Positions 40,231 to 48,403 of a stretch of DNA of 64,000 bases are shown here, in pieces. The stretch's first letter is position 1, and every line of letters begins with the position of its first letter. The notes under the pieces were generated by a model. The model searched no databases. It was not told the DNA's origin and saw only the letters and a list, made by a program, of their open reading frames with translations. Origin of the DNA: Bacillota bacterium (lineage in GTDB: Bacteria > Bacillota > Clostridia > Caldicoprobacterales > Xylanivirgaceae); assembly GCA_023621995.1 (NCBI GenBank), contig JAMOAB010000068.1, positions 1 through 64,000 of the forward strand, in the 5' to 3' direction. The translations under genes and the position numbers were made by a program.

Positions 40231-40506
40231 AAAAAAATCCCTAACCTTGATAACTCAAGGACGGGATTGGTTCACGTGGTGCCACCTTGTTTTGTTATAG
40301 AAACTCTGCATAAGTTTCCATAACCTCAATAGATATAACGGTCTCTGCCGGTGCTGGTTCTTTCCCAGACAGCTCCAAGGTGGATTCGATAGGATACCGG
40401 GCAGTTTTCACCGACCACCGCCTCTCTAGAACATACTATTCAGTATAGCCTATCTACTATTCCTTTTCATCACTTTACCTTGTTAAATTAACATGCATCT
40501 TATATA
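40231..40506 (-). ncRNA. T-box leader, serine specifier (UCC)
   Basis: The minus strand shows T-box features in order: the promoter, a Stem I beginning with AAGTGATGAAAAGGAATAG, the AGAGAGGCGGTGG element, a specifier reading GAA-UCC-ACCUUGGAGCU with UCC at 40384-40382 (serine), the T-box sequence AAGGTGGCACCACG at 40288-40275, and a terminator (stem TCCCGTCCTTGA/TCAAGGTTAGGGA at 40266-40238, followed by seven T at 40237-40231). Uncharged tRNA-Ser should stabilise the antiterminator and switch on the aminotransferase-serA unit. Confidence 0.93.
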
Positions 40507-45021: not shown

Positions 45022-46803
45022 TTATATATCTAATTTGATATGAAGTTCTTTCAGTTGTTTTTGGTCCACTGGTGATGGTGCTTCTGTCATCAGGTCAGAA
45101 GCATTTTGAACTTTAGGAAAGGCAATAACTTCCCTTATAGAGTCTTCTCCAGCAAGGAGCATTACAAGTCGATCTAGTCCATAAGCTATTCCACCATGGG
45201 GCGGTACTCCATATTGAAAAGCCTTTAGTAAAAATCCAAATCTCTCCCAGGCTTGTTCCTCAGTAAAACCTAGTGCCTTAAACATTCTCTCTTGCAGTTT
45301 CGAGTCATGTATTCTAATACTTCCCCCGCCTATTTCTATACCATTTAGCACAATATCATATGCTTTTGAACGTACCCTTTTGGGCTCAGTTTCTAGATAA
45401 TCTATATCTTCTTCCATTGGTGAAGTAAAAGGGTGATGCTTTGCTACATATCTCTTCTCTTCTTCACTATATTCAAACAATGGGAATTCTGTAACCCAAA
45501 GCAAATTGTATTGGGAATCATTCATAAGTCCAAGTCTTCTACCTAATTCTAACCTTAATTCTCCTAAAGCATGAAATACAATCTCATCTTTATCTGCTAC
45601 AAATAGTAATAAATCACCAGGTTCCCCATTTAAATTCTCTAATAGAGCATCTAAACAATCAACATTGAAGAATTTAGTTATAGGAGATTTCAAACCTTCT
45701 TCTTCTACTATAATCCATGCTAAACCTTTTGCCCCATAATCCTTTACATAATCTACTAACCCGTCTATTTCTCGTCTAGAAAAAGAAGCCCCACATCCCT
45801 TTGCATTTATTGCCCGTACACTGCCTCCCTTTTCAATGGCATTTGTAAATACTTTGAAATCGGAATTTTTAACGATATCACTTACATCTTTGAGCTCTAA
45901 TCCAAAACGAGTGTCTGGTTTATCACTACCATATCTATCCATAGCTTCCTTATAGGTCATTCTAGGTAATGGTAGCTCTATGTCAATATCAAGAGCATTT
46001 TTAAATATCTTTGCGAGCATTCTTTCATTTAAATCTATAATGTCATCCACATCTATAAACGACATCTCAATATCTATTTGGGTAAATTCTGGTTGTCTAT
46101 CTGCTCTTAAGTCTTCGTCTCTGAAGCAACGAGCAATTTGATAATACCTATCATACCCTGATAGCATTAATAGCTGTTTAAATAGTTGAGGTGATTGTGG
46201 CAATGCATAAAAAGCCCCGGGATGTATTCGACTAGGTACTAAGTAATCTCTGGCTCCCTCCGGAGTACTCTTAGTGAGCATTGGTGTCTCTATTTCTAAA
46301 AAGCCTTTTTCATCCAAGAATTCTCGAATCCATTTACACACATTATGGCGCAATATTAAATTTTGTTGCATCTTAGGTCTTCTAAGATCTAGATATCTAT
46401 ATTTTAATCGAACGGCATCTGATACTTTAGTATTATCTTCAATCATAAAGGGAGGAGTTTGGGAAGTAGATAATATGTCAAGCTCTCTTGCGACTACTTC
46501 AATATATCCAGTAGATATCTTAGTATTCACCGTCTCTTGCGCCCTTTCTACCACATCACCTTTGATTGCTATGACATATTCATTCCTTAATTTTTCGGCA
46601 TCGTCAAAGTATTTTCCACACTTTTTAGCATCAAATACAACTTGGACTATACCTTCCCTATCTCTGAGATCTATGAATATTAGCCCACCAAGATCTCGTC
46701 TTCTCTGTACCCATCCCATTATAGTAACTTTTTTACCTACATGATTTTGATTTAGATGACCACACATATGTGTTCTATTAAGTTTTTTCATTGCTTTTTC
46801 CAT
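45022..46803 (-). CDS. aspS: Aspartyl-tRNA synthetase
   Basis: AspRS charges tRNA-Asp. The 593-residue protein has an N-terminal OB fold ([23 protein letters not shown]), class II motifs ([29 protein letters not shown]), the GAD insertion found in bacterial enzymes and the closing motif [24 protein letters not shown]-like segment. The ATG at 46803 has GGAGGTT with 8-nt spacing. It follows hisS. Confidence 0.97.
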
Positions 46804-46822
46804 AATTACAACCTCCATAATA

Positions 46823-48085
46823 TTAGTGTATTTTTGCAACAAGAGTTTCAGCCAAATTATCAATTGGGATTTCAGTCTCCACTCCGGTTTCCATATTTCT
46901 CAATTTAATTATATTGCTTTCAAGTTCGTTGTCGCCCAATATACAAACCCATGGAACGTCTAATTTATCACTATATTTAAATTGGGATTTTAAACTCCTA
47001 CCTAGATGATCTAGGTCGGCAGCTATTCCTAATTTTCTTAAATCTGTTACTAATTGGATAGCTTTTGATTTTGACGCCTCTCCTATAGTTGCAAAGAATA
47101 TATCTAGTTCTTTTTCGCTTGGTATGTCTGTTTTTTGTCCCTCCATTACCATAAGAAGTCTGTCAAGTCCCATACCAAATCCGATTCCTGGAGTAGCGGG
47201 ACCACCACATTCTTCCACTAATCCATCATATCTGCCACCACCACACACTGTGCCTTTAAATTTACCTTCTTCAGCAATTATTTCAAATACAGTCTTGGTA
47301 TAATAGTCTAATCCCCTAACTATCATGGGATTGATTTTATAGTCTAGATTCATAGCTGACAGGTATTTCTTCAAGGCCTTAAAATGTTCGCTACATTCTT
47401 CACAAAGATAATCTAATACAACAGGTACATCTTGTAAAAGTTTCTTACAAGATTCCTCTTTACAATCTAAAATCCTCAAAGGATTTTTATGATATCTATC
47501 TTGACAAGTAGGACATAACCTATTGTATCTATCTTTTAAAAACTCTTTTAGTTCCTTTTGATACTCTGGGCGACATTTAGGACAACCAATACTACTTATG
47601 TTTATATAGACATGGCCAATATCTAGTCTTTTCAAAAGATCCATGGCTAAGCCTATTATCTCTGCATCAATAGAGGGTTCTTTAGCTCCAAAAACTTCTA
47701 CACCAAATTGATGATGTTGTCTTAGTCTTCCTGATTGAGGTGCTTCATAGCGAAATACCGGTGTTATATAATACATTTTTATTGGTTGAGACTGGGCATA
47801 TAGACTATGCTCTATATAAGCCCTTGCTACCCCTGCTGTACCCTCAGGTTTTAAAGTAATGCTTCTCTTTCCTTTATCTAAAAAGGTATACATCTCTTTT
47901 TGAACGATATCTGTAGTATCTCCTACGCCTCGTTCGAATAGTTCAGTATGTTCAAATATAGGTGTCCTTATCTCTCTATATCCATATAATCTTGTAAGTT
48001 CACGTATGTGTTCTTCAATATACTGCCACTTATATGATTGATTTGGAAGTATATCTTTTGTACCTTTTGGTGCTCTTGTAAGCAT
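46823..48085 (-). CDS. hisS: Histidyl-tRNA synthetase
   Basis: HisRS charges tRNA-His. The 420-residue protein has the class II motifs [42 protein letters not shown] and [12 protein letters not shown], and the HisA motif [13 protein letters not shown]. It contains a Cys-rich insert (CPKC, CPTC, CKEESC) characteristic of some clostridial enzymes. It is the first gene of the T-box-controlled operon. Confidence 0.97.
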
Positions 48086-48112: not shown

Positions 48113-48368
48113 AAAAGCTCCCCAATCCCAATATCAAGGGACGAGAAGCCATGCACTCGCGGTACCACCCTTTTTGGAGAATATATCTCCCCGCTCTAAC
48201 TCATAACGCCAAGCTGCGGACTTACTTACTATTAATACTACATTGTTCAGTAAGTCAACTCCGAAGTGTCCTTCTCTAGAATATGGATAAAGTACATTTT
48301 CAGCATATATGCACTCTCTCTGTTAACCTCATCTAGATACTCTCTTCATCATAGTTTTTAACATTATC
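48113..48368 (-). ncRNA. T-box leader of hisS-aspS, GACAC specifier
   Basis: The minus strand shows a Stem I starting ACTATGATGAAGAGAG, the specifier GAAGGACACUUCGGAGUU, the T-box motif AAAGGGTGGTACCGCG at 48173-48158, and a terminator at 48149-48113 that ends in TTTT. Aligned with the serine T-box in this window, the specifier triplet is GAC (48270-48268, Asp); the next overlapping triplet is CAC (48268-48266, His). The two downstream enzymes are HisRS and AspRS. Confidence 0.9.
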
Positions 48369-48374
48369 ATATTA

Positions 48375-48403
48375 AATATAATAATTTTTCTTTCTATTGT
48401 CAA
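48375..48403 (-). promoter_or_regulatory. Sigma-A promoter of the hisS-aspS T-box unit
   Basis: TTGACA at 48403-48398, 17-bp spacer, TATATT at 48380-48375. The -35 is 2 bp beyond the hemZ stop codon, so hemZ has no terminator of its own. Confidence 0.88.

What the first reader, a model, noticed from the sequence alone, without database searches (positions are those of the whole stretch)
48266..48270. hisS-aspS T-box specifier GACAC reads both Asp (GAC) and His (CAC)
The T-box in front of hisS-aspS has its specifier at GGACACUU. Aligned by the following ACUUCGGAG with the UCC-ACCUUGGAG of the serine T-box in this window, the codon is GAC for Asp. The overlapping triplet CAC is His. The operon encodes HisRS and AspRS, so a leader able to sense both tRNAs would fit. 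T-boxes with more than one usable specifier have been described for other operons, so this is a specific prediction rather than a new principle.
Basis: partly seen in the sequence, partly recalled or inferred. Interest (0 to 1): 0.65.

Follow-up and report, generated by a model that had tools for sequence, protein, structure and literature searches.

The report
Ordinary aspartate T-box before hisS-aspS
The RNA switch in front of the histidyl- and aspartyl-tRNA synthetase genes is a standard T-box that reads aspartate tRNA; the overlapping histidine codon is a by-product of the usual T-box layout, has been noted in print before, and is lost in about one in five relatives that keep the switch.

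Summary
Window 48361-48134 (- strand) is a 131-bit RF00230 T-box before hisS-aspS, and 48270-48266 reads GACAC. GAC sits in the canonical specifier slot. The next A (48267) is the purine that stacks under the codon-anticodon duplex. The final C (48266) is the first pair of the stem below (GAAG:CUUC). Any C-ending specifier followed by A and then C or U gives an out-of-frame His codon: it occurs in 28 of 69 C-ending T-boxes not linked to hisS in seven genomes, and in 12 of 13 Ile T-boxes. In 63 hisS-aspS leaders it occurs in 51, no more often than in the Ile controls (p=0.45), and is lost in 12. All 63 bulges are UGGC or UGGU, which pair with G73 of tRNA-Asp and not with C73 of tRNA-His. Fourteen leaders have an Asn (AAC) specifier instead, so the slot tracks tRNAs of AspRS, not of HisRS. 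GACAC in hisS-aspS leaders and the dual-sensing idea go back to Gutierrez-Preciado et al. 2009, known here only through citing papers. Verdict: Asp-responsive T-box, already known. Dual sensing is unlikely but not excluded, because no binding or antitermination test was possible.

The parts
48375..48403 (-). sigma-70-type promoter-like site TTGACA-17-TATATT
   Evidence: consensus scan, 11 of 12 matches; a sequence match only
48134..48361 (-). T-box leader (RF00230), full length
   Evidence: cmscan 131.1 bits, E 7.5e-29, model 1-219
48344..48347 (-). 5' strand GAAG of the helix below the specifier loop
   Evidence: pairs with CUUC 48263-48266; Rfam structure and register scan
48338..48341 (-). 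AGUA of the specifier-loop S-turn
   Evidence: Rfam alignment
48268..48270 (-). specifier codon GAC (Asp), canonical register
   Evidence: aligned to the Rfam consensus slot GAA-n-codon-a-CC; the same slot holds recognisable codons in other T-boxes of this genome
48267..48267 (-). conserved purine after the codon (A; equivalent of A90 of the O. iheyensis glyQ T-box)
   Evidence: position in alignment; role of the purine from PMC7583486
48263..48266 (-). 3' strand CUUC of the helix; its first base is the last C of the out-of-frame CAC
   Evidence: 4 of 4 pairs with 48344-48347
48266..48268 (-). out-of-frame CAC (His), judged here to be incidental
   Evidence: lost or changed in relatives; equally frequent in Ile T-boxes
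48161..48167 (-). T-box bulge UGGUACC; variable base U48164 can pair with G73 of tRNA-Asp (wobble), not with C73 of tRNA-His
   Evidence: sequence; tRNA discriminators of this genome
48116..48150 (-). terminator hairpin followed by UUUUAUAUU
   Evidence: RNA fold -19.8 kcal/mol, z -2.5 for the 60-base segment; the consensus terminator scan found none
46823..48085 (-). hisS, histidyl-tRNA synthetase
   Evidence: TIGR00442 518 bits
45022..46803 (-). aspS, aspartyl-tRNA synthetase (start taken at the ATG at 46803)
   Evidence: TIGR00459 850 bits

Best explanation
This is a canonical transcriptional T-box that senses uncharged tRNA-Asp through GAC and pairs the tRNA 3' end with UGGU, stabilising the antiterminator so that hisS and aspS are transcribed. 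HisRS is co-regulated because it shares the transcript. The overlapping CAC is produced by a C-ending specifier followed by the usual stacking A and the usual C of the first helix pair. Shown by sequence: the T-box, the register, the helix, the gene order, and the frequencies in relatives. Inferred: the response to tRNA-Asp and the absence of a response to tRNA-His.
For: GAC fills the Rfam specifier slot. The last C of CAC is a helix base: in 63 leaders its partner is G in 42 of 48 cases when it is C, and A in all 10 cases when it is U; the register was chosen by best pairing, which favours this. A His codon in the +2 frame is as common in Ile T-boxes (12/13) as in hisS-aspS leaders (51/63, p=0.45), and as common in all ANC or NAC specifier T-boxes (16/20, p=1.0). 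Twelve of 63 leaders lack any His codon there, including a same-genus pair GACGC (L066) versus GACAC (L068). All 63 bulges are UGGC or UGGU (two automatic 'A' calls in 54 are pattern slips, see the motifs). tRNA-Asp has G73 and tRNA-His C73 in this genome. Fourteen leaders carry AAC, a codon of tRNA-Asn; leaving out the one family with AsnRS, all 9 AAC genomes lack AsnRS against 17 of 41 GAC genomes (p=0.002).
Against: Taken against all C-ending T-boxes together, the +2 His codon is enriched in hisS-aspS leaders (51/63 against 28/69, p=3e-6); this disappears only when codon class is matched, and the matched sets are small (13 to 20). The leaders are related by descent, so counts are not independent. 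TBDB does not use the discriminator base to rule out His, because tRNA-His C73 can be paired internally (PMC7778990). AAC leaders of one family with AsnRS are not explained by an AspRS that charges tRNA-Asn.
Confidence: 0.87

Rival explanations
1. Two-codon T-box: tRNA-Asp reads GAC in the canonical register and tRNA-His reads CAC two bases further on, after the first helix pair opens and the stacking A becomes the middle codon base.
For: CAC or CAU is present in 51 of 63 hisS-aspS leaders. Both genes lie downstream. [quoted passage not shown] acetobutylicum (described in PMC4052509), and the B. cereus lysK T-box also responds to tRNA-Asn (PMC2916919). Dual sensing through two alternative structures was suggested for hisS-aspS (PMC4342826 citing Gutierrez-Preciado 2009).
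Against: Needs a helix base as third codon base, uses up the stacking purine, mismatches the bulge with C73, is lost in 12 of 63 leaders, and is no commoner than in Ile T-boxes. The published opinion quoted in PMC5313534 is that GACAC mainly interacts with tRNA-Asp.
Confidence: 0.08
2. His-specific T-box reading CAC only, GAC being incidental.
For: hisS is the first gene of the operon.
Against: CAC is out of register; GAC or AAC is kept in 62 of 63 leaders while CAC/CAU is lost in 12; the bulge never pairs with C73.
Confidence: 0.01
3. Asp-specific specifier, but with real tolerance for tRNA-Asn in this genome, because AspRS there probably charges tRNA-Asn as well (no AsnRS found).
For: No AsnRS above the cut-off in the window's genome. 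Relatives switch between GAC and AAC in this slot. tRNA-Asn also has G73.
Against: The specifier here is GAC, whose first base mismatches the GUU anticodon of tRNA-Asn. AspRS type and amidotransferase were not tested.
Confidence: 0.04

Closest known systems
hisS-aspS T-box with GACAC (Gutierrez-Preciado et al. 2009, as cited in PMC5313534 and PMC4342826)
   Same: same operon, same GACAC in the specifier loop, same Asp/His overlap already discussed
   Different: another species; no other difference found
Two-codon T-box of C. acetobutylicum reading tRNA-Asn and tRNA-Glu (Saad et al. 2013, as described in PMC4052509)
   Same: overlapping codons in one specifier loop
   Different: there both tRNAs were shown to bind; here the second codon runs into the helix and is not maintained in relatives
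Ile T-boxes of the same and related genomes
   Same: AUC followed by A and C/U gives the same out-of-frame His codon in 12 of 13 cases
   Different: no link to histidine, so they serve as the control

Membership tests
T-box riboswitch (RF00230) | covariance-model score above gathering threshold over the full model | tested here: met
   131.1 bits against 93, positions 1-219
T-box riboswitch (RF00230) | specifier codon in the canonical slot followed by a purine | tested here: met
   GAC then A; Rfam slot GAA-n-codon-a
T-box riboswitch (RF00230) | UGGN bulge able to pair with the cognate tRNA discriminator | tested here: met
   UGGU with G73 of tRNA-Asp, wobble; UGGC in the same-genus relative
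T-box riboswitch (RF00230) | antiterminator/terminator alternatives before an amino-acid gene | tested here: met
   terminator hairpin folds; hisS-aspS downstream; switching itself not tested
Two-codon (dual tRNA) T-box | second codon maintained in related leaders beyond the family background | tested here: not met
   lost in 12 of 63; equal to Ile controls
Two-codon (dual tRNA) T-box | bulge compatible with the second tRNA (C73 of tRNA-His) | tested here: inconclusive
   UGGC/UGGU in all leaders, C73 in tRNA-His; TBDB treats this criterion as unsafe for His
Two-codon (dual tRNA) T-box | binding of and antitermination by both tRNAs | not testable with these tools
   needs an experiment

The most novel reading that the evidence does not exclude
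The leader senses tRNA-Asp through GAC and, by opening the first pair of the lower helix, also tRNA-His through CAC two bases downstream.
Probability: 0.08. Interest if true: 0.5.

Novelty: already known. Interest (0 to 1): 0.2.

Why it matters
It shows that an overlapping second codon in a T-box is weak evidence for dual sensing: the family layout (C-ending codon, then A, then a C/U-starting helix) writes an out-of-frame His codon into about 40% of C-ending T-boxes not linked to hisS. It also shows that hisS-aspS leaders switch between Asp and Asn specifiers, which points to AspRS as the enzyme whose tRNA is monitored.

Tried and rejected
A test of functional dual reading by conservation: the raw enrichment of CAC in hisS-aspS leaders (p=3e-6) first looked like support, but it vanished against codon-matched controls. 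The idea that AAC leaders occur only where AsnRS is missing: holds for 9 genomes of 8 families but fails in one family (f24), where four of five genomes have AsnRS. The primary papers (Saad 2013, Vitreschak 2008, Gutierrez-Preciado 2009) are not held, so their content is taken only from citing papers. Single-sequence folding of the specifier region did not recover the T-box fold. True His T-boxes were not collected for comparison of the CAC register.

Full report
What is there. The - strand of window 48361-48134 is a full-length T-box leader (RF00230, 131.1 bits). It is followed by hisS (46823-48085) and aspS (45022-46803), identified by TIGR00442 and TIGR00459. A TTGACA-17-TATATT site lies just upstream and a terminator hairpin with a U-rich tail at 48150-48116. 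GACAC is at 48270-48266 as stated.

Register. The Rfam consensus around the specifier is GAA-n-codon-a-CCcu-gGAG. The window reads GAA-G-GAC-A-CUUC-GGAG. GAC is the codon, A48267 the stacking purine (A90 in glyQ, PMC7583486), and C48266 the first base of a perfect four-pair helix with 48347-48344 (GAAG). CAC would need the stacking purine as second codon base and a helix base as third. TBDB considers only frames -1, 0 and +1; CAC is at +2.

Background frequency. I read the specifier regions of 87 T-boxes not linked to hisS, from the window's genome and six relatives (some registers assigned by eye). Of 69 with a C-ending specifier, 19 have CAC and 9 CAU in the +2 frame. Among them are the serine T-box of this window (UCCACC), Ile (12 of 13), Leu, Pro, Thr and Tyr T-boxes. 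None has to do with histidine.

Relatives of the hisS-aspS leader. From HisRS searches over class, order, family and phylum and fetched upstream regions I curated 63 distinct leaders with a T-box. Specifiers: GAC 48, AAC 14, GGC 1. The +2 triplet: CAC 44, CAU 7, others 12 (CGC 4, CAA 2, CGA 2, CCU 2, CAG 1, CUU 1). Compared with all C-ending controls the His codon is enriched (p=3e-6). Compared with Ile (p=0.45), Ile plus Thr (p=1.0) or all ANC and NAC specifiers (p=1.0) it is not. The choice of A after the codon therefore follows the codon class. These tests ignore shared descent, and the matched control sets are small.

The helix base. When the base after the purine is C its partner is G in 42 of 48 leaders; when it is U the partner is A in 10 of 10; one A pairs with U. 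This is what a helix pair does, not a free codon position. The register was picked by best pairing, which biases the count upward.

The tRNA end. In this genome tRNA-Asp ends G73-CCA and tRNA-His C73-CCA. All 63 leaders have UGGC or UGGU (37 and 26 after correcting two automatic mis-calls from the motifs printed). Both pair with G73, neither with C73. TBDB cautions that this criterion is unsafe for His, so it is supporting evidence only.

Asn specifiers. Fourteen hisS-aspS leaders have AAC. Nine of the genomes, outside one family, all lack AsnRS, against 17 of 41 GAC genomes tested (p=0.002); with the family included (4 of 5 have AsnRS) p=0.07. The simplest reading is that the leader monitors tRNAs charged by AspRS, including tRNA-Asn where AspRS must serve both; that is inference. 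The exception family is unexplained. I found no paper in the held library on this, but the library is partial.

Literature. PMC5313534 states that T-box-controlled hisS-aspS operons are known from bacilli and lactobacilli, that GACAC is characteristic, and that Gutierrez-Preciado et al. 2009 suggested it mainly interacts with tRNA-Asp. PMC4342826 cites the same paper for sensing of both tRNAs by two alternative structures. The two citing papers stress different sides; I could not read the original. Either way the observation and the hypothesis are not new.

Verdict. A regular Asp-responsive T-box. Dual sensing cannot be excluded without an antitermination test.

Noticed in passing
L076, L082, L083, L270, L271/L099, L078, L086, L275, L279, L304, L321, L324, L329, L340: hisS-aspS T-box leaders with an Asn (AAC) specifier; outside one family all their genomes lack AsnRS, as if the leader monitors tRNA-Asn charged by AspRS.
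   Followed up: partly
L076, L082, L083, L270 (family f24): AAC specifier before hisS-aspS although the genome has a full AsnRS; not explained.
   Followed up: partly
L152: hisS-aspS leader whose specifier slot reads GGC (Gly), one base from GAC; could be a decayed or re-targeted leader or a sequence error.
   Followed up: no
window genome G000: No AsnRS above the NCBIfam cut-off, so AspRS (window 45022-46803) may charge tRNA-Asn too; amidotransferase genes not checked.
   Followed up: no
window 40254-40479 (-): Serine T-box (UCC, UGGC) before a serC/serA-like pair; its UCCACC holds the same out-of-frame CAC.
   Followed up: yes
T-box set: The base after the specifier goes with codon class: A after AUC, ACC, GAC, AAC; G after GUC and mostly after UUC, UGC. 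Reason unknown, perhaps tRNA position 37.
   Followed up: no
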